A stretch of DNA of 64,000 nt from Solirubrobacteraceae bacterium (GCA_030447505.1 JAUJOT010000001.1:124001-188000); one strand, 5' to 3'; positions 9,452 to 19,935 are shown, counted from the stretch's first letter. Numbers and translations are program-made. The notes: generated from the letters alone by a model not told the origin.

Positions 9452-9545
9452 CCCTCTTCGGCGGGCAACCTAGCACGCAAACACGGTGCAAGTGGGGCCA
9501 GTTCTCCTACAGTCTGTGGCGACCTGCGAGCTGGAGGAGAACGGG

Positions 9546-9950
9546 ATGGCCGATGAGGAAGCACACGACGTCGCGACCGGCGAGGGCTACGCCGTCGGCA
9601 ACATCGGCGCGCTCGGTCACGGCGGCGGTTTTCGCAAGATCCGCCAGGCGCTGGAGGTCAAGGCGCTGGGCATCAACGCGATCGTCATGCCGCCCGAGTT
9701 CGCGGGCCGCCGCCATTACCACTACACCCAGGAGGAGACGTACTTCATCCATCAGGGACACGCCGAGCTCGAGTTCGGCGACGGTTCGGTGCATCGCCTC
9801 GGACCCGGCGGGATCGCCCGTATCGACGCCGAGACCGTGCGCCGGATCCGCAACGTCGGCGACGAGGACCTGATCTACGTCGCGGTCGGCGGCAAGGACG
9901 GCTACGTCGAGAACGACGGCCACCTGCTGCCCTCCGAAGAGACCGGCTGA
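9546..9950 (+). CDS. cupin domain protein
   Basis: A 134-residue single-domain cupin. Motif 1 is seen as RRHYHYTQEETYFIHQGHAE (residues about 58-77), where two histidines and a glutamate are set up as metal ligands. Motif 2 is weaker around GPGGIARIDAETVRRIRN. Such small cupins often act as isomerases, dioxygenases or sugar-binding domains; the substrate is not evident. The ATG at 9546 follows a GGAGGAG ribosome-binding site. The lipoprotein gene starts 2 bases after its stop. Confidence 0.8.
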   Translation: MADEEAHDVATGEGYAVGNIGALGHGGGFRKIRQALEVKALGINAIVMPPEFAGRRHYHYTQEETYFIHQGHAELEFGDGSVHRLGPGGIARIDAETVRRIRNVGDEDLIYVAVGGKDGYVENDGHLLPSEETG

Positions 9951-9952
9951 CC

Positions 9953-10390
9953 ATGCGCCGCGCAACCGTCGCCGCTGCGGCGCTGGCGATCGCCGCGGCG
10001 CTGGCCGGCTGCGGCGACGCCGACGAGCCCGCCGCACAGCAGACCGCGACGACGGCATCCGGAGCGATCGAACTGACGATCGTCTACGACGACGGCTCCG
10101 GACGCAAGACGACGGGCGCACTGACCTGCCGCGGCGCCGTCCAACGCGCAGAGGGCGCACTCGACGGCGCTGCCTCGCCCGCGAAGCTGTGCGCACAGGC
10201 GCGCGGAAACAAGGAGCTTCTGACGACGACTCCCGACAAGGGCCGCCAGTGCACGCAGATCTACGGCGGGCCCGAGACGGCGCACGTCACGGGCACGATC
10301 GACGGCGACAAGGTCGACCGGCGCTTCACGCGTACGAACGGCTGCGAGCTCGCCGACTACAAGCGCGCCGCAGGACTGCTGCCGCCGTAG
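9953..10390 (+). CDS. SSI-like (subtilisin-inhibitor-like) lipoprotein
   Basis: A 145-residue protein with a lipobox ALAGC at about residue 20. The mature part matches the Streptomyces subtilisin inhibitor pattern: ALTCRG with a cysteine, AKLCAQ, GRQCTQIYGGPETAHVTG, and the closing FTRTNGCELADYK, giving four cysteines able to form two disulfides. SSI proteins inhibit extracellular serine proteases; here it would be tethered to the cell surface. It is probably co-transcribed with the cupin gene. Its last 65 bases overlap the convergent CDP-alcohol transferase gene. Confidence 0.75.
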   Translation: MRRATVAAAALAIAAALAGCGDADEPAAQQTATTASGAIELTIVYDDGSGRKTTGALTCRGAVQRAEGALDGAASPAKLCAQARGNKELLTTTPDKGRQCTQIYGGPETAHVTGTIDGDKVDRRFTRTNGCELADYKRAAGLLPP

Positions 10391-11153
10391 CGAGACCGCT
10401 CCAGGCCGCGCCTGCGAGCACGAGCGCGTCGGCGAGGCGCCTGCGCCCCAGTCCCGCGGCGACGAGACCGCCTGCACGGATCGGCGTCGTGACGCGCGCC
10501 GCGTGCAGCACGCGCGGGTCGGGCGCCTGCGCCGAGCCGAACCAGACCAGCAGCGCGTACCCGAGGCCGCCGGCGATCCGCGCGAGCTCGGCGGCCGCGG
10601 CGGCGCGCCCGAGCCACCCGCATCGACGCGCGCCACGTAACGCGGCAACGGCGAACGCGGCGTCGGCAAGACCCTCGAGGTCGCGCCCGAGGCGCGTTGG
10701 GACCGACGCGCGCGCGAGCTGCCCGTCGAGCCCATCGGTCGCGAACGCCAGCGCGCACATCCACGGCTGCGGCGTGTCGGCAGCCGCGGGAGCAAGCCAG
10801 ACGCGCGCGAGCGTGCACGCGTCGGCCGCCCCGAGGTTGCGCGGCTCGCCGTCCTCGCTCTCGAGCATCCCGATGTGCCAGTCGAGCATCAGCCACGTCA
10901 GCGCCCACGATCCGGCGAACGCTTCCGTGCGGCGCCGAAACGGCTCGCGTCCGGCGATTGCGAGCGCGGTCCAAGCGGCGGCGCCGAAGGCGACCCAGAC
11001 GCGCATCCGGCGCGCGGTCTGCGGCCGGGCGCCGCGCTGCGCGTTGCAGCGCCGCTGGCTTTCGAGCAGGAAGCGCCCCACGGCGCGCGGCCTGAAGCGC
11101 GCGGCGAGCAGCAGCGCAAGCTGCTCGCGCGCCCACAGCTCGCCAGGAGTCAG
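10326..11153 (-). CDS. CDP-alcohol phosphatidyltransferase family protein
   Basis: A membrane enzyme of up to 275 residues. The signature TDGLDGQLAR-x7-GRDLEGLAD is close to the family motif DxxDGxxAR-x8-GxxxDxxxD, but the third aspartate is replaced by glutamate and the spacer is one shorter. This may mean altered chemistry. Several hydrophobic helices follow. Family members transfer a phospho-alcohol from a CDP-activated donor to an acceptor alcohol, as in phosphatidylinositol synthesis. The start is unclear: a CTG at 11153 overlaps the upstream stop (CTGA) and gives LTPGELWAREQ; the first ATG is about 145 bases downstream. It is coupled to the flavoprotein gene. Confidence 0.7.
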   Translation of the reverse strand: MTPGELWAREQLALLLAARFRPRAVGRFLLESQRRCNAQRGARPQTARRMRVWVAFGAAAWTALAIAGREPFRRRTEAFAGSWALTWLMLDWHIGMLESEDGEPRNLGAADACTLARVWLAPAAADTPQPWMCALAFATDGLDGQLARASVPTRLGRDLEGLADAAFAVAALRGARRCGWLGRAAAAAELARIAGGLGYALLVWFGSAQAPDPRVLHAARVTTPIRAGGLVAAGLGRRRLADALVLAGAAWSGLATAAAVLRRACSRRARSRSYA

Positions 11154-12319
11154 ATCAGCGCCTCGAAGACGTCGTCGACCTGCTGCCAGCCGACCTGCAG
11201 CAGGAACTGGGCGTTTCGCCCGTAGGACTTCGCGCCGAGGATGAGGAAGCCGGGCTCCGGGTTGCGCAGCGTGTCCGGGCCGTGCGAGGCGATCGCCAGG
11301 CAGTCGCCGCCGGCGCTCCCCAGCAGCGCGGCGGCGAGGTTCATCGGCCCCGAGGTGGCGTAGCACTCGTGCACCTGCAGCTGGCGGTAGAGCCCGTGGT
11401 CGCCGACGCCGCCGTTGAGCGCGAGGATCCGGTCGACCTCGAGCTCCTCGCCGCGGCCGTTTCGCAGCGTCACGGCGATCCGGTCGCCGCGGCCGCGCAG
11501 CGCCTCGGTGACGTGGCCCGCGCGCACCTGCAGCGCGTCGCTGGCGCCGGCCGCGAGCTGCGCCGCCGCCGCGCCGAGCGACGCGCGCTCGGGCAGCGGG
11601 TCGCCGGGCACGACGCCCCAGTCCGGGGCCGGGTTGCGCACCGCCCAGACGACGCGCGTGCCGGGCGCGTCGCGCGCGAACTCGGCCAGCCGGAGGGCCG
11701 CGGTCTGCGCCGAGTGGCCGGCGCCGGTGAGCAGGATCGTGCGGCCGGCCCACAGCTCGGCCTGCGCCTCGAACGCCGGCAGGTAGCGCTCGATGCGCTC
11801 TTCGAAGACGCGCTCGTTGACCGCGTCGATGCCGCCGTCGCCGAGCCGGTTGGGGTGCCCATACGTGCCGGTCGCGTCGATCACGACGTCGGCATGGACG
11901 ATCGCCTCGTCGCCGTCGGGGCCGGCCACGAGCAGTCGCAGCGGCGCCGCCGCCCGGCGCGGGTCGCCGACCGCCTCGTGCTTGAGCAGGCCCTCGCGGC
12001 CGACGGCGAGCACGCGCGTGCGCAGGCGGATGCGGTCGCGCAGCGCGGGCAGCGCGGCAATCGGCTCGAGCAGCTCGTCGGCGAGCTGCCCGCCCGTCGG
12101 CAGCGCGGCGCCGCTCGGCGCGGATGGCAGAGCGGCGCGCATGCGCGGCGAGACGTTCATCGCCCAGGGCGTGAACGTGCGCACGTGGCTCCAGCGGCGC
12201 AGGTGCCCGCCGACCGTCGGGGCGGCTTCGAACACCTCGAAGTCGTCGCCGCGTGCGGCCGCGGCGAGCGCGGCCTCGAGGCCGATCGGACCCGCTCCCA
12301 GGATGGCGATACGCCTCAT
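11150..12319 (-). CDS. FAD/NAD(P)-binding flavoprotein
   Basis: A 389-residue oxidoreductase. The N-terminal Rossmann motif IAILGAGPIGLEAALAA binds FAD. A second nucleotide-binding motif, ILLTGAGHSAQTAALRL (about residue 205), suggests NAD(P)H. The VIDATGTYGHPN block near 160 is typical of flavin monooxygenase-like and thioredoxin-reductase-like proteins. The substrate is unknown. The ATG at 12319 lies directly before the Rossmann strand; a GTG at 12352 is a less likely start. It is transcribed divergently from the phosphoesterase-radical SAM gene with only 50 bases between, so the two arms may share control. Confidence 0.8.
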   Translation of the reverse strand: MRRIAILGAGPIGLEAALAAAARGDDFEVFEAAPTVGGHLRRWSHVRTFTPWAMNVSPRMRAALPSAPSGAALPTGGQLADELLEPIAALPALRDRIRLRTRVLAVGREGLLKHEAVGDPRRAAAPLRLLVAGPDGDEAIVHADVVIDATGTYGHPNRLGDGGIDAVNERVFEERIERYLPAFEAQAELWAGRTILLTGAGHSAQTAALRLAEFARDAPGTRVVWAVRNPAPDWGVVPGDPLPERASLGAAAAQLAAGASDALQVRAGHVTEALRGRGDRIAVTLRNGRGEELEVDRILALNGGVGDHGLYRQLQVHECYATSGPMNLAAALLGSAGGDCLAIASHGPDTLRNPEPGFLILGAKSYGRNAQFLLQVGWQQVDDVFEALI

Positions 12320-12369
12320 CGAGCTCCTCGTGGTGATCCCTCCCCCGCGCACCCACGATACTCATACGG

Positions 12370-14064
12370 ATGCCGAGGATCGCCGTGTTCGGCGGCGTGT
12401 ACGCCAATCCATACGCGCTCCGCGCCCTGCTGGACGACGCCCGCGAGCGCGGCTGCGACGGGCTCTACTGCCTCGGCGATCTCGGCGGCTTCGGGGCCGA
12501 GTGCGACGCGATCTGGCCGCTGCTGCTCGAGCACGAGGTGACGACACTCGCCGGCAACTACGACGTCGCGATCGGCCGCGGCGACGAGGACTGCGGCTGC
12601 GGCTACGCCGATGCGCGCGACGACGCGTTCGCGCAGCTCATGTACGACCACACGCGCGCGCACACGTCAGCGCCGTTCGCGGCGTGGATGGCCGGGCTGC
12701 CCGGCGAGCTGCGCTGCGAGATCGGCGGGGTCGACGTCCACATGGTCCACGGCTCGCCGCTGGCGATCAACGACTTCCTCTGGGAGTCGCTCTCTGATGA
12801 GGAGCTCGCGCTGCGCGTACGCGCGAGCGGCGCGCAGCTGCTGCTGTGCACGCACACCGGGATCGCCTGGGAACGCGCGGTCGAGGGGACGCGGATCGTC
12901 AACGTCGGAGCGGTCGGGCGGCCCGCGAACGACGGTCGGACCGAGGTGCGCTATGCGGTGATCGATCTCGAGCGGTCCGTCGTCGAGCGCGTCGAGCTCG
13001 TGGCGCTCGCGTACGACTGGCGCGCGCAGGCCGCGTCGATGCGCGCGTCGGGGCTGCCCGAGCCGTTCGTGGAGACGATCGAGACCGGCTGGTGGACGAC
13101 CTGCCTGGAGATCGTGCCGCCGCGCGAGCGCGCGCGCGGCGCATTTCACGTCTACCGCGACGCGCTGCCGCAGCTCGACGCCGCCGCGGCTGGCTGGGCT
13201 GACGCCGTCGTCGCCGCCGACGACGAGCGACCGGTCGTCTCGCTGTTCTCCTCGCCGCTCTTCCCGCCGCGCCTGTGGGTCTACTCGAACTTCCACTGCA
13301 ACCTCGCCTGCGACTACTGCGTCGTCGCGAGCTCGCCCGGCGCTCGCCGCCGCGAGCTGTCCGCCGAGCGCTTCTTCGCGCTCGTCGACGAGGCGGTGCG
13401 CGAGGGCTTCGGCGAGATCTACGTCACCGGCGGCGAGCCGTTCGTGCACCCGCAGATCGCGGCGATGCTCGAGTACGCGTCCGATCGGCTGCCGACGGTC
13501 GTGCTCACGAACGCGATGCTCTTCACGGGGCGCCGCCGTGCAGAGCTCGCGCGCCTCGCCGAGCGCCCCGGCCTGACGCTGCAGTCCTCGATCGACGGCG
13601 CACGTGCAGCGACGCACGACCGCTGGCGCGGCGCGGGCTCGTGGGCCAAGGCGATCGACGGGTTGCGGGTGGCGGCCGAGCTCGGCCTGCCGCTGCGCGT
13701 CGCGATGACGCAGACGCCCGACAACCGCGACGAGGTCGCGCAGCTGCGCAGCCTGCTGGAGCAACTCGGCATCACAGGCGACGCGTTCGCCGTACGGCCG
13801 CTGGTGGCGCGCGGGTTCGCGGCCGGCGCGGCGGCGCCCGGCGCGATCGAGGTCTCCGATGCGGTCATGGTGCCCGAGCTGACGATCAGCGCCGACGCCG
13901 CCCACTGGCACCCGGTCGGCGCCGACCTCGACTCCTGCCCGGACTTCCTCGTCGCGCGCGGCGAGGTCTCACTCGCCGAGGCCAAGCGGCGCGTGATCGA
14001 GCGCTTCCTCGAGCTGCGCCAGGCCGACGGCTCGCTGCCCGACGCGTTTCGGTGCGCGGTGTGA
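12370..14064 (+). CDS. metallophosphoesterase-radical SAM fusion protein
   Basis: A 564-residue two-domain protein. Residues 1-200 form a calcineurin-like phosphoesterase: GDLGGFG (GDxxG), AGNYD (GNxD), MVHGSP and CTHTGI are its metal motifs; the usual first DxH is changed to FGGVYAN. Residues about 300-560 are a radical SAM domain with CNLACDYC (CxxxCxxC, the 4Fe-4S site) followed by VTGGEPFVHP. The domains are joined by a short linker with no stop between. The family's reaction is SAM-based radical chemistry; the substrate here is probably a phosphorylated sugar or lipid precursor (inference from context). The ATG is at 12370; the stop overlaps the glycosyltransferase start. Confidence 0.8.
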   Translation: MPRIAVFGGVYANPYALRALLDDARERGCDGLYCLGDLGGFGAECDAIWPLLLEHEVTTLAGNYDVAIGRGDEDCGCGYADARDDAFAQLMYDHTRAHTSAPFAAWMAGLPGELRCEIGGVDVHMVHGSPLAINDFLWESLSDEELALRVRASGAQLLLCTHTGIAWERAVEGTRIVNVGAVGRPANDGRTEVRYAVIDLERSVVERVELVALAYDWRAQAASMRASGLPEPFVETIETGWWTTCLEIVPPRERARGAFHVYRDALPQLDAAAAGWADAVVAADDERPVVSLFSSPLFPPRLWVYSNFHCNLACDYCVVASSPGARRRELSAERFFALVDEAVREGFGEIYVTGGEPFVHPQIAAMLEYASDRLPTVVLTNAMLFTGRRRAELARLAERPGLTLQSSIDGARAATHDRWRGAGSWAKAIDGLRVAAELGLPLRVAMTQTPDNRDEVAQLRSLLEQLGITGDAFAVRPLVARGFAAGAAAPGAIEVSDAVMVPELTISADAAHWHPVGADLDSCPDFLVARGEVSLAEAKRRVIERFLELRQADGSLPDAFRCAV

Positions 14065-14768
14065 GCGACGCCGGCGCGGCCGGTCCGCTCGTGTCGGTCC
14101 TGATCCCGACCCTGAACGAGGAACGCGAGCTGCCACAGCTGCTCGACCACGTCAGCGCCCTGCACGGCCGCTGGGAGGTCATCCTCGCCGACGGCGGCTC
14201 AAGCGACGCGACGCTGCAGATCGCCTGCGCACACCGCGCGCGACCACGCGTGATCGAGAGCACCGGCGGCCGCGCCGCGCAGCTCAACGCGGCCGCGCGC
14301 ACCGCGACCGGCGACGTCCTGCTGTTCCTGCACGCCGACAGCCGCCTTCCGCGCGATGCCTACGCGTCGCTCGCGGAGGCCTGGCGCAGCACGTCACGGA
14401 CTGTCGGCGGTAACTTCGCGCTGCGCTTCGGCGACGGCCGCTTCGAGCGCGCGCTCGGCGCCGTCTACCGCCTGCAGCGCCGGCACGGCTTCTACTACGG
14501 CGACTCGTCGGTCTGGGTGCGGCGCGAGGCGTTCGACGCGCTCGGCGGCCTGCGCGAGATCCCGATCATGGACGACTACGACTTCGTCCGCCGGCTCGAG
14601 CGCAGCGGCACGACGCGCTGCCTGCCCGGCCCCGCGACGACGTCGGCGCGCCGCTGGCGCAAGGCCGGGATCGCGCGCACGGTGCTCGCCTGGTTCGTGA
14701 TCCGCTGGCTGTTCGTCGCCGGCGTCGAGCCGCAGCGCCTGGCGCGCCTGTACCGCGTCGTGCGCTGA
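14061..14768 (+). CDS. TIGR04283-type family 2 glycosyltransferase
   Basis: A 235-residue GT2 enzyme. Visible motifs are SVLIPTLNEERELP, the DGGSSDAT nucleotide-sugar site, FLHADSRLP (DxD-like) and IMDDYDFVRRLERSG. The pattern LIPTLNEE, DGGSSD and GRAAQLN is that of the TIGR04283 group, which was named for arsenosugar clusters although many members lie in other contexts. A GTG start at 14061 overlaps the preceding stop (GTGA), so the two genes are translationally coupled. No arsenic methyltransferase is present nearby, so an arsenosugar role is not supported. Confidence 0.8.
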   Translation: MSDAGAAGPLVSVLIPTLNEERELPQLLDHVSALHGRWEVILADGGSSDATLQIACAHRARPRVIESTGGRAAQLNAAARTATGDVLLFLHADSRLPRDAYASLAEAWRSTSRTVGGNFALRFGDGRFERALGAVYRLQRRHGFYYGDSSVWVRREAFDALGGLREIPIMDDYDFVRRLERSGTTRCLPGPATTSARRWRKAGIARTVLAWFVIRWLFVAGVEPQRLARLYRVVR

Positions 14769-14824
14769 CGCGCCTACCCGGCGGGGTGAGTCGCGCCGGG
14801 CCGACGACGCGCTACGTTGCCGGC

Positions 14825-16225
14825 ATGACCTCGATCGGCACTCGGCTGCGTGAGCTCGAGGTCGCGACGCGCCCGGAGCACCCGGACCTGAGCGCCGCGC
14901 TCGCCGCGCGCTGGGCGCAGCTTCCGGCGCACGTCAAGCAGCCCAACCAGATGCTCGGCCGGCGGATGACCGGCTGCGAGGGGACGCACGGCGTCTTTCC
15001 CCGCTGCGACCTCGCCTGCACCCCCTGCTATCACGGCAAGGAGGCGCAGCGGGTGGGCACCGACGGCGACCACACCGAGCGCGAGGTCGACCGCCAGATG
15101 GCGCTCTTGCGCGAGCTTCGCGGTCCCGGCCAGCACGCGCAGCTGATCGGCGGCGAGGTCACGCTGCTCGGCCCCGACGACCACGCTCGTGCGCTGCAGG
15201 CGATGATCCGCCACGGCCGCAAGCCGATGTCGATGACGCACGGCGACTTCGACTACGCGTATCTGGAGGCGCTCGCGCTCGACCCGCAGACCGGCACTCC
15301 ACGCTTTGCGCACCTCGCCTTCGCCGGGCACTTCGACTCGCTCATGCTCGGCCGCCGCGGGATCAAGCGCGCGCGCAGCGAGGCCGAGCTTCACCCCTAT
15401 CGCGCGAGGTTCTGTGAGATGTTCGAGCGCCTCGAGCGCGAGCACGGGGTCACGCACTACCTCGCGCACAACATGACGATCACGCCGCGCAACGTCGACG
15501 AGATCGCCGACGTCCTGCGTGCGACGCGCGACATGGGCTTTCGGATGTTCTCCTTCCAGCCCGCCGCCTACATCGGCAACGAGGCGCGCTGGAAGGACGA
15601 CTTCCGAGCGTTCTCGACCGACGACGTCTGGCGGCGGATCGAGCAGGGCGCCGGCGCACGGCTGCATTTCAACGCCGAGCAGGTCGGCGACGTGCGCTGC
15701 AACCGCACCGCGCACGGGATCTACGTCGGCGACCGCTACGCGACGCTGCTCGACGAGGACGACCCGCGCGACGCATGCGCGCTCGAGGACTTCATCGTCG
15801 CCTTTGGCGGGATGGACTTCGACGACCGCCGGCGCCGGCTGCAAGCGGCGCGCGCAGCGCGGGCCGTCGCGCGCCATCCCGCCGTGCTGCGCAGCGGCTC
15901 GGCGTGGGCCGTACGCCTGCTGCGCCGCCTCGGCGGCGTGCGCGCGATCCGCCGCGACAGGCCGCGGGCGATCACGTACGTCATGCACGCATTCATGGAC
16001 GCCCGCGACGTGAAGCCCGCCTGGGAGCTGCTGCAGCGTGGCGAGCTGTCAGACGAGCCGAAGATCCGTGAGACGCAGGAGCGCCTGCAGGGCTGCTCCT
16101 ATGCGATGGCGCACCCCGAGACGGGCACGATCGTGCCCGCCTGCGCCCAGCACTCGGTCCTCGACCCGCTCGAGAACCTGCGCCTCGCCGAGCTGCTCCC
16201 GGCTCACGAGATCGCGGCGCCGTAG
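14825..16225 (+). CDS. radical SAM protein of unrecognised subfamily
   Basis: A 466-residue protein with CDLACTPC at about residues 63-70, a CxxxCxxC cluster site, preceded by TGCEGTHGVFPR. The downstream strand IGGEVTLLG corresponds to the GGEP motif of radical SAM enzymes. A C-terminal region of about 120 residues contains additional cysteines (DACALED, QGCSYAM, VPACAQH) that could bind an auxiliary cluster. I do not recognise a named subfamily. It follows the glycosyltransferase by 56 bases on the same strand and is probably part of the same unit. The ATG at 14825 matches the start of conserved sequence. Confidence 0.75.
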   Translation: MTSIGTRLRELEVATRPEHPDLSAALAARWAQLPAHVKQPNQMLGRRMTGCEGTHGVFPRCDLACTPCYHGKEAQRVGTDGDHTEREVDRQMALLRELRGPGQHAQLIGGEVTLLGPDDHARALQAMIRHGRKPMSMTHGDFDYAYLEALALDPQTGTPRFAHLAFAGHFDSLMLGRRGIKRARSEAELHPYRARFCEMFERLEREHGVTHYLAHNMTITPRNVDEIADVLRATRDMGFRMFSFQPAAYIGNEARWKDDFRAFSTDDVWRRIEQGAGARLHFNAEQVGDVRCNRTAHGIYVGDRYATLLDEDDPRDACALEDFIVAFGGMDFDDRRRRLQAARAARAVARHPAVLRSGSAWAVRLLRRLGGVRAIRRDRPRAITYVMHAFMDARDVKPAWELLQRGELSDEPKIRETQERLQGCSYAMAHPETGTIVPACAQHSVLDPLENLRLAELLPAHEIAAP

Positions 16226-18438: not shown

Positions 18439-19935
18439 TCACCCCACGGGCGGCGCGATCTCGCGCTTGAGGATCTTCCCGGTCGGGCCCTTCGGCAGCT
18501 CGTCGACGAGCCAGATCTCGCGCGGGTACTTGTACGCCGCGACCTGTTGCTTGACGAATGCGCGCAGCTCGTCGATCTCGACCTCCGCGCCATCCTTGAG
18601 CGCGACTGCCGCCCCGACCTCCTCGCCGAGCTCGGAGTGCGGGACGCCCACGACCGCCGCCTCGCGCACGGCGGGATGCGCGTAGAGCACCTCTTCGACC
18701 TCCCGCGGGTAGACGTTGTAGCCGCCGCGGATGATCAGCTCCTTCTTGCGATCGACGATGAAGAAGTAGCCGTCCTCGTCGACCTTCGCCATGTCGCCGG
18801 TGGCAAACCAGCCGTCCTTGATCGACTCCGCCGTCGCCTCCGGCTGGTTGAGGTAGCCCTTCATGACGTTGTGGCCCTTGATCAGGATCTCGCCGATCTC
18901 ACCCTGCGCGACCTCCTTGCCCTCGTCGTCGACGCACTTCATCTCGACGCCCTCGATCGGCGTCCCGATCGAGCCCGGCTTGCGCTCGCGGTCGGGGTGG
19001 TTGAACGACGCGACCGGCGAGGTCTCGCTGAGGCCGTACCCCTCGAGGACCTTGCAGCCGAAGCACTCCTCGAAGCCGCGCAGCACCTCGACCGGCATCG
19101 ACGCCCCGCCCGACACGCAGACGCGCAGGCTCGAGATGTCGTGGTTCTTGCGGTCGGGATGGTGCAGCAGCGCGCCGTACATCGTCGGCACGCCCTCGAA
19201 CACCGTGCACCGGTCGCGCTCGAGGATCTCCAGCGCCTTGCCGGGCTCGAAGCGGGGCAGCAGCGTGACGGTGGCCCCGCACCTGATCGCGGCGTTCATC
19301 GTGCACGTCTGGCCGAAGGAGTGAAACAGCGGCAGCGCGCCGAAGATCACATCGCCGACGGCCATGTCGAACAGGCCGACGGCGACGTCGACGTTGTTGC
19401 GCAGGTTGTCGTGCGTGAGCTCGGCGCCCTTCGGCTTGCCGGTCGTGCCCGAGGTGTAGAGGATCACCGCAGTGTCGTCGCCGGCGCACTCGGCGACCGC
19501 GGGGTCGGGCTCGTGCGCGAAGATCGCGCCCTCGATCTCGCCCGGCTTGACCGACACGATCTCGACGCCGCCCGCCTCCTTCGCGCCGGCCTCGGCGGCC
19601 TCGAGGAAGTCATGCCAGGCGAAGAGCACCTTGACCTGCGGGTCCGAGAGGTAGAAGCCGACCTCGCGGCCCTTGAGCAGCACGTTCATCGGCACGACGA
19701 CGCCGCCCGCGCGGAGCACGCCGTAGTAGATCGCCGGAAAGTACGGGACGTTGGGGAGCATGATCCCGACGCGGTCGCCGGCGCCGACGCCCTTGCTCCT
19801 GAGCATCGCCGAGACCCGCTGGCTGGCGTTGTCGAGCAGACCGTAGTTGAAGGCGGCGTCGTCGAGCTTGACGGCGATCTCGTCGGGATGCTCGGCAGCC
19901 GTGCGCGTCAGGTTCGAGGCGAGATTGGCAGACAT
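18439..19935 (-). CDS. fadD: long-chain fatty acid-CoA ligase (AMP-dependent synthetase)
   Basis: A 498-residue ANL-superfamily enzyme that activates a fatty acid through an acyl-AMP to acyl-CoA. The AMP-binding P-loop YTSGTTGKPKGAE is near residue 165, the A5 motif YGLSETSP near 300, GDMAKVDEDGYFFIVDRKKELI near 385, GGYNVYPREVEE near 412 and the catalytic lysine of PTGKILKREI at the C-terminus. All core motifs are intact. It could feed the acyl-CoA dehydrogenase elsewhere in the window. Chain-length specificity is not visible. Confidence 0.9.
   Translation of the reverse strand: MSANLASNLTRTAAEHPDEIAVKLDDAAFNYGLLDNASQRVSAMLRSKGVGAGDRVGIMLPNVPYFPAIYYGVLRAGGVVVPMNVLLKGREVGFYLSDPQVKVLFAWHDFLEAAEAGAKEAGGVEIVSVKPGEIEGAIFAHEPDPAVAECAGDDTAVILYTSGTTGKPKGAELTHDNLRNNVDVAVGLFDMAVGDVIFGALPLFHSFGQTCTMNAAIRCGATVTLLPRFEPGKALEILERDRCTVFEGVPTMYGALLHHPDRKNHDISSLRVCVSGGASMPVEVLRGFEECFGCKVLEGYGLSETSPVASFNHPDRERKPGSIGTPIEGVEMKCVDDEGKEVAQGEIGEILIKGHNVMKGYLNQPEATAESIKDGWFATGDMAKVDEDGYFFIVDRKKELIIRGGYNVYPREVEEVLYAHPAVREAAVVGVPHSELGEEVGAAVALKDGAEVEIDELRAFVKQQVAAYKYPREIWLVDELPKGPTGKILKREIAPPVG

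What the first reader, a model, noticed from the sequence alone, without database searches (positions are those of the whole stretch)
10326..16225. Divergent cluster with two radical SAM proteins, possibly a new biosynthetic pathway
The genes of a CDP-alcohol transferase, a flavoprotein, a phosphoesterase-radical SAM fusion, a TIGR04283-type glycosyltransferase and a second radical SAM protein sit together, with coupled starts and a single 50-base divergent control region. Family knowledge: the TIGR04283 group was named from arsenosugar clusters, but no arsenic methyltransferase or arsenite gene is here. Inference: the set could build a modified sugar-phosphate or glycolipid head group, with the CDP-alcohol transferase attaching it to a lipid.
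Basis: partly seen in the sequence, partly recalled or inferred. Interest (0 to 1): 0.75.

Follow-up and report, generated by a model that had tools for sequence, protein, structure and literature searches.

The report
Conserved two-radical-enzyme, probable lipid cluster
A block of five neighbouring genes in a soil-type actinobacterium (Solirubrobacterales) recurs as a unit in related bacteria and encodes two undescribed radical enzymes, one shaped like the enzyme that builds archaeal membrane-spanning lipids, so it probably makes an unknown sugar-bearing phospholipid.

Summary
In detail: five genes at 10326-16225 encode a CDP-alcohol phosphotransferase (CDPT), an FAD/NAD(P) flavoprotein (FLAV), a phosphoesterase-radical SAM fusion (PE-rSAM), a TIGR04283 glycosyltransferase and a second radical SAM protein (rSAM2), around a 50-bp divergent gap. 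They are one conserved module: of 151 genomes of the order, 16 of 22 with rSAM2 carry PE-rSAM (14 within about 5 kb), and all 17 PE-rSAM genomes carry TIGR04283. Neither radical protein belongs to a family of known function. rSAM2's predicted fold is closest by a wide margin to tetraether lipid synthase Tes (Z 21.4; next 13.1); it keeps the radical cysteines and three cysteines aligned to C-terminal ones of Tes, but lacks Tes's N-terminal metal domains. The fused phosphoesterase has lost exactly the three ligands of one metal site. Where rSAM2 occurs without PE-rSAM and glycosyltransferase it usually sits with YnjBCD/YnjF, relatives of E. coli's uncharacterised ynj operon, so a CDP-alcohol phosphotransferase again accompanies it. 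Best reading: biosynthesis of an unknown (glyco)phospholipid; the lipid assignment and chemistry are inferred, the product unknown. Arsenic is unlikely: ArsS in none of 18 cluster genomes, ArsM missing from 7.

The parts
10326..11153 (-). CDP-alcohol phosphotransferase (CDPT), about 275 aa; likely CTG start at 11153 overlapping the FLAV stop (next start GTG 11081)
   Evidence: PF01066 21.2 bits against cut-off 22 for this copy; homolog in L081 37 bits; DxxDGxxAR(x7)Gxxx[DE]xxxD motif conserved in 11 homologs; start evidence
11150..12319 (-). FAD/NAD(P)-dependent flavoprotein (FLAV), 389 aa, two GxGxxG/GxGxSA-type motifs
   Evidence: Pyr_redox_2 36 bits; orthologs of 67-84% identity only in rSAM2 genomes, 11 of 11
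12320..12369 (.). 50-bp divergent intergenic region
   Evidence: read directly; corresponding gaps in relatives are about 38-173 bp
12370..14064 (+). PE-rSAM fusion, 564 aa: degenerate calcineurin-like phosphoesterase domain plus Rv1681-related radical SAM domain
   Evidence: Metallophos_2 44 bits, Radical_SAM 70 bits; NF049973 Rv1681 family 270 bits, below its 380 cut-off
12394..12402 (+). degenerate phosphoesterase motif I: GVY where stand-alone paralogs have DxH (D to G, H to Y)
   Evidence: changed in all fused homologs that cover it, kept as DxH in stand-alone homologs
13297..13320 (+). radical SAM CX3CX2C motif of PE-rSAM (C310, C314, C317)
   Evidence: invariant in 16 homologs
14061..14768 (+). 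TIGR04283 family GT2 glycosyltransferase, 235 aa
   Evidence: 207 bits, cut-off 182
14825..16225 (+). rSAM2: second radical SAM protein, 466 aa, Tes-like predicted fold
   Evidence: 21-sequence alignment, AF2 model pLDDT 84.5, PDB matches 7tol/7tom
15005..15028 (+). rSAM2 CX3CX2C (C61, C65, C68)
   Evidence: invariant; aligns to Tes C98, C102, C105
15698..15700 (+). rSAM2 C292, aligned to Tes C338
   Evidence: invariant; same pairing by MAFFT and by hhalign through a Tes-like protein
16094..16144 (+). rSAM2 C-terminal motif with C424 and C440, aligned to Tes C455/456 and C470
   Evidence: invariant; alignment

Best explanation
The five genes are one functional module that most likely makes an unknown phospholipid or glycophospholipid. 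Proposed steps: (1) PE-rSAM binds a phosphorylated substrate (sugar phosphate or nucleotide sugar) in a phosphoesterase-derived domain that has lost one metal site, and changes it by radical chemistry; (2) the TIGR04283 glycosyltransferase (with a TIGR04282 nucleotidyltransferase in some relatives) transfers the sugar; (3) the CDP-alcohol phosphotransferase joins the head group to a lipid; (4) rSAM2, a Tes-like enzyme with a radical cluster and probably one auxiliary cluster, acts on an unactivated C-H position of the lipid; (5) the flavoprotein supplies electrons or a redox step. In other genomes rSAM2 instead sits with YnjBCD and YnjF, which suggests the head group can be imported rather than made. 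Shown: conservation, synteny, alternative partners, motifs, Tes-like predicted fold. Inferred: substrates, order of steps, lipid product. Rough confidence: functional module 0.95; lipid-related 0.5; this whole scheme 0.3.
For: Co-occurrence and synteny: rSAM2 with PE-rSAM 16 of 22, PE-rSAM with TIGR04283 17 of 17, FLAV 11 of 11; neighbourhoods. CDP-alcohol phosphotransferase beside rSAM2 in both architectures: CDPT in most PE-rSAM loci, YnjF-type in L072, L074, L082, L091, L092 and L122. Of the five rSAM2 genomes with no PE-rSAM/TIGR04283 detected, four carry YnjB; the fifth, G073, is a fragmentary assembly with rSAM2 next to FLAV. rSAM2 fold: 7tol/7tom Z 21.4/21.3, rmsd 4.2, 337-339 residues, next entry (viperin) 13.1; Foldseek ranks 1-2. 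Cysteine correspondence. Tes binds phospholipid chains and forms a substrate-sulfur bond to its C-terminal [Fe4S4] cluster (PMC9433317). Metal-site loss in the fused phosphoesterase. TVP38/DedA-like membrane protein near rSAM2-FLAV in L142 and L143 (recognised by sequence character, not by a family search).
Against: No product, substrate or activity is known. Sequence similarity of rSAM2 to Tes is weak (NF045702 17 bits against cut-off 450; profile-profile probability 56%, E 1e-4, not reaching the C-terminal part). The larger superfamily also holds enzymes of unknown function such as TrsS, so a Tes-like fold does not prove a lipid substrate. rSAM2 lacks the two N-terminal metal domains of Tes. 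The CDPT match is marginal for the window copy. The PE-rSAM model is poor (pLDDT 64). Some PE-rSAM loci lack rSAM2 and CDPT (L151, L152). Counts are not corrected for phylogeny and come partly from incomplete genomes.
Confidence: 0.33

Rival explanations
1. A modified-sugar or other small-molecule pathway in which rSAM2 acts on the head group or a soluble intermediate and not on lipid chains; the Tes-like fold only reflects membership of a broad superfamily.
For: Sequence similarity to Tes is weak. PE-rSAM's best solved relative by sequence is BlsE, a cytosylglucuronate decarboxylase. The glycosyltransferase is the best-assigned enzyme. TrsS, a radical SAM (seleno)protein whose library entry states no function, is an equally near family hit.
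Against: The fold match to Tes stands far above all other radical SAM enzymes. A CDP-alcohol phosphotransferase recurs in both architectures.
Confidence: 0.32
2. An arsenosugar or arsenolipid pathway with a replacement radical enzyme.
For: TIGR04283 and, in relatives, TIGR04282 are named for arsenosugar biosynthesis. ArsM is present in 11 of 18 cluster genomes, including this one at C12:298309.
Against: ArsS (TIGR04167) over cut-off in 0 of 18 cluster genomes. ArsM missing from 7 of 18, among them G001 (98% complete) and G083 (96%). No arsenic gene in the window's cluster; ArsM is on another contig.
Confidence: 0.1
3. Handling of another metal or metalloid (selenium, mercury) or of oxidative stress, suggested by the MerA-like flavoprotein, DF-family (seleno)protein and ArsR-like regulators near some copies.
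For: MerA-like protein in the same locus as rSAM2 in most genomes examined; DF family match 112 bits; ArsR-like genes in L072 and L078.
Against: The MerA-like protein is below the MerA cut-off (310 against 454 bits) and scores best to an FAD-containing oxidoreductase subfamily, also below its cut-off. In the window's genome its best homolog (46%) is on another contig.
Confidence: 0.1

Closest known systems
Tetraether synthase Tes / GDGT-MAS (MJ0619; PDB 7TOL, 7TOM; NCBIfam NF045702)
   Same: Predicted fold of rSAM2 (Z 21.4, 337 residues); radical CX3CX2C; Gln268 that contacts 5'-deoxyadenosine aligns to Q245; C338, C455/456 and C470 align to C292, C424 and C440.
   Different: About 16-17% identity; 17 bits against a family cut-off of 450; no rubredoxin motif (C9, C12, C33) and no C73/C77/C80 cluster motif; Met439 and Tyr459 not strictly kept.
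Rv1681 family radical SAM protein (NF049973)
   Same: Radical domain of PE-rSAM, 270 bits over profile positions 60-326; the two branch together against other homologs.
   Different: Below the 380 cut-off; fused to a phosphoesterase domain; different gene neighbourhood. No paper on the function of Rv1681 was found here.
Calcineurin-like metallophosphoesterases (3RQZ, 1NNW; stand-alone paralogs in the same order)
   Same: Domain homology, 34-39% identity to stand-alone paralogs; motifs GD, GNYD, VHGSP and the first H of GHTH kept.
   Different: Motif I DxH lost (GxY) and the second H of GHTH lost, that is, the three ligands unique to one metal site.
TIGR04283/TIGR04282 arsenosugar-type clusters
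   Same: TIGR04283 (and TIGR04282 in some relatives) next to a radical SAM protein.
   Different: Radical partner is not ArsS; ArsM is not linked.
E. coli ydjXYZ-ynjABCDEF operon
   Same: YnjBCD, YnjF and, in L138, a TVP38-like protein occur as rSAM2's alternative partners or as the same system without rSAM2.
   Different: E. coli's operon has no rSAM2; the window's genome has no YnjB.

Membership tests
TIGR04283 glycosyltransferase | score over curated cut-off (182 bits) | tested here: met
   207 bits over the full model
Tetraether synthase Tes (NF045702) | score over curated cut-off (450 bits) | tested here: not met
   17.1 bits
Tetraether synthase Tes (NF045702) | N-terminal rubredoxin domain and N-terminal [Fe4S4] cluster cysteines | tested here: not met
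   absent from the rSAM2 alignment
Tetraether synthase Tes (NF045702) | C-terminal auxiliary [Fe4S4] cluster | tested here: inconclusive
   three invariant Cys align to Tes C338, C455/456, C470, but which Tes residues ligate that cluster was not read from the structure, and Met439 is not strictly kept
Tetraether synthase Tes (NF045702) | couples lipid chains | not testable with these tools
   needs biochemistry
Rv1681 family (NF049973) | score over curated cut-off (380 bits) | tested here: not met
   270.5 bits
Arsenosugar biosynthesis cluster | ArsS (TIGR04167) present | tested here: not met
   0 of 18 genomes over cut-off, own genome included
Arsenosugar biosynthesis cluster | ArsM present in the genome | tested here: inconclusive
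   present in 11 of 18, own genome on another contig, missing from 7
CDP-alcohol phosphatidyltransferase (PF01066) | gathering score and DxxDGxxAR(x7-8)Gxxx[DE]xxxD motif | tested here: inconclusive
   21.2 bits against 22 for the window copy; a homolog scores 37; motif kept with third acid D or E
Two-metal calcineurin-like phosphoesterase | complete ligands of both metal sites | tested here: not met
   DxH and the second H of GHTH lost in the fused homologs; which ligands belong to which metal site is general knowledge of the fold, not tested

The most novel reading that the evidence does not exclude
rSAM2 founds a family of bacterial Tes-like radical enzymes that use an auxiliary Fe-S cluster to make carbon-carbon or carbon-sulfur bonds on phospholipid chains, and the module, together with the ynj operon known from E. 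coli, makes or handles an undescribed class of bacterial phospholipid whose head group is either built (PE-rSAM, TIGR04282/TIGR04283) or imported (YnjBCD).
Probability: 0.15. Interest if true: 0.88.

Novelty: new variant of a known kind. Interest (0 to 1): 0.62.

Why it matters
If the lipid reading is right, it adds radical-SAM lipid chemistry outside the families now used to explain membrane-spanning and ether lipids, and gives a concrete, testable role to the uncharacterised ynj operon of E. coli. Even without it, two undescribed radical SAM families and a phosphoesterase-derived domain with one metal site lost, conserved as a unit across two families of one order, are well-defined targets for enzyme discovery.

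Tried and rejected
Arsenosugar pathway: no ArsS, ArsM not linked. PE-rSAM as a full Rv1681 family member: below cut-off. A fold search with the PE-rSAM model was not run because the model is poor (pLDDT 64). Literature: nothing found for Rv1681 with radical SAM, TIGR04283, arsenosugar with radical SAM and glycosyltransferase, or YnjF with CDP-alcohol; the ynj and ydj searches gave only passing mentions or general TVP38/DedA papers. Phmmer of rSAM2 alone against the PDB gave only unrelated weak hits; the profile touched 7tol at E 1.3. The divergent intergenic regions of seven relatives were read but show no obvious shared motif by eye (no motif search run). In the VIA-align list no family other than Tes stands out; absence of a family there is not evidence against it.

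Full report
Observation. The window lies in a 3.84 Mb, 13-contig, high-GC genome; its nearest named relatives are Solirubrobacteraceae metagenome assemblies. The cluster reads CDPT (-), FLAV (-), a 50-bp gap, PE-rSAM (+), TIGR04283 glycosyltransferase (+), rSAM2 (+). PE-rSAM and the glycosyltransferase overlap by four bases; CDPT probably starts with a CTG that overlaps the FLAV stop; rSAM2 starts 56 bp after the glycosyltransferase.

Family assignments. The glycosyltransferase is over the TIGR04283 cut-off. PE-rSAM matches Metallophos_2, Radical_SAM and, below cut-off, the Rv1681 family. rSAM2 matches no named family over cut-off; TrsS (21.8 bits) and Tes (17.1 bits) are nearest. Its radical motif is invariant in 21 homologs, with four further invariant cysteines, C51, C292, C424 and C440.

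Conservation. Among 151 genomes of the order, 22 have rSAM2, 17 have PE-rSAM, 21 have TIGR04283 over cut-off and 11 have close FLAV orthologs. Fisher tests: rSAM2 with PE-rSAM p 8e-16, PE-rSAM with TIGR04283 p 5e-19, rSAM2 with FLAV p 4e-11. In 14 of the 16 genomes that have both radical genes they lie within about 5 kb; in G010 they are about 38 kb apart on one contig and in G043 on different contigs. These tests ignore phylogeny, and several genomes are incomplete. In the phylum sample 12 of 396 genomes have rSAM2, some outside the class; G290, of the same class but another family, has PE-rSAM next to TIGR04283 on one contig and rSAM2 next to FLAV on another.

Alternative partners. Five rSAM2 genomes lack a PE-rSAM and TIGR04283 match. 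Four of them (G028, G059, G077, G083) are four of the six genomes with YnjB; G036 has both sets; G101 has YnjB without rSAM2; G073 is fragmentary and has rSAM2 beside FLAV. Loci with YnjB, an ABC ATPase, permeases and a YnjF-type CDP-alcohol phosphotransferase next to rSAM2 were read directly. The E. coli K-12 operon ydjXYZ-ynjABCDEF was checked in the annotated record. A MerA-like flavoprotein is in the same locus in most rSAM2 genomes, but in the window's genome its best homolog (46%) is on another contig.

rSAM2. The AlphaFold2 model has mean pLDDT 84.5 and pTM 0.87. Foldseek ranks the two Tes structures first; VIA-align gives them Z 21.4 and 21.3 (rmsd 4.2, 337-339 residues), the next entry 13.1. 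A joint alignment pairs the radical cysteines, Q245 with Tes Gln268, and C292, C424, C440 with Tes C338, C455/456, C470; hhalign pairs C292 with the same cysteine of a Tes-like protein but is modest overall (probability 56%, E 1e-4). Tes residue numbers come from the chain sequence printed by the search minus a 20-residue offset, which agrees with C9, C12, C33, C73, C77, C80, Met439 and Tyr459 of the paper. rSAM2 lacks the N-terminal metal domains. In Tes the C-terminal cluster forms a sulfur bond to the lipid chain (PMC9433317). That rSAM2 has such a cluster and acts on lipid is inference. No Tes over cut-off was found in 296 sampled genomes of the phylum, and the window's genome has no match at 1e-15.

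PE-rSAM. The fused phosphoesterase has GxY for DxH and THTG (SHTG in one) for GHTH in the fused homologs that cover these motifs, whereas twelve stand-alone homologs keep them (one match starts inside the first motif). By general knowledge of this fold, the lost residues are the ligands unique to one metal. A tree of the radical domain puts the fused proteins in one supported group (97/95) beside the Rv1681-type protein, with the two copies lacking the phosphoesterase domain nested inside, so the domain was probably lost there. In those two loci FLAV is also absent between CDPT and the radical gene.

Arsenic. TIGR04167 over cut-off in 0 of 18 cluster genomes; ArsM over cut-off in 11 of 18, including this genome at C12:298309, and missing from G001, G063, G066, G139, G055, G077 and G083.

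Conclusion. One conserved module: very likely. Lipid-related: about even. The detailed scheme is a working model at about 0.3. The rSAM2-Ynj genomes are few, so the build-or-import idea rests on small numbers.

Noticed in passing
L138:8458-14726; L123; L119; L139: YnjBCD/YnjF-type genes, partly with a MerA-like flavoprotein and a TVP38-like protein, form a recurring actinobacterial counterpart of E. coli's ydj-ynj operon, with or without rSAM2.
   Followed up: partly
L129:6586-7308 (G010); also G046:C161, G058:C280: Stand-alone phosphoesterase homologs of the fused domain lie within about 3 kb of an ArsM gene in three genomes.
   Followed up: no
L151:5457-14031 and L152: In another family: MFS, PE-rSAM (48%), TIGR04282, TIGR04283, an NADH-dehydrogenase-like flavoprotein, a MerA-like protein and a TVP38-like protein, without rSAM2.
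   Followed up: partly
L072:6391-7122; L073, L079, L080, L084: A conserved membrane protein of about 243 aa near rSAM2 or PE-rSAM with no Pfam or NCBIfam match.
   Followed up: partly
window 18439-19935; L066, L068, L069: An AMP-dependent acyl-CoA ligase homolog sits within a few kb of the cluster in several genera; it could be a cluster member or common synteny.
   Followed up: no
window 9516-9950; L067:6283-6696; L068; L071: A cupin gene lies near the cluster; in relatives it is next to FLAV. The window copy is only 39% identical to that of L067.
   Followed up: no
G063:C1 around 1.27 Mb and 3.36 Mb: One genome carries two copies of the rSAM2/PE-rSAM/TIGR04283 cluster.
   Followed up: no
L157, L156, L163: Actinobacterial Tes/TrsS-like proteins, below the Tes cut-off, are followed directly by a methyltransferase-like gene.
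   Followed up: no
G000:C12:298309-299106 (L128:7298-8119): The window's genome has an ArsM over cut-off next to an ArsR-like gene, far from the cluster.
   Followed up: partly
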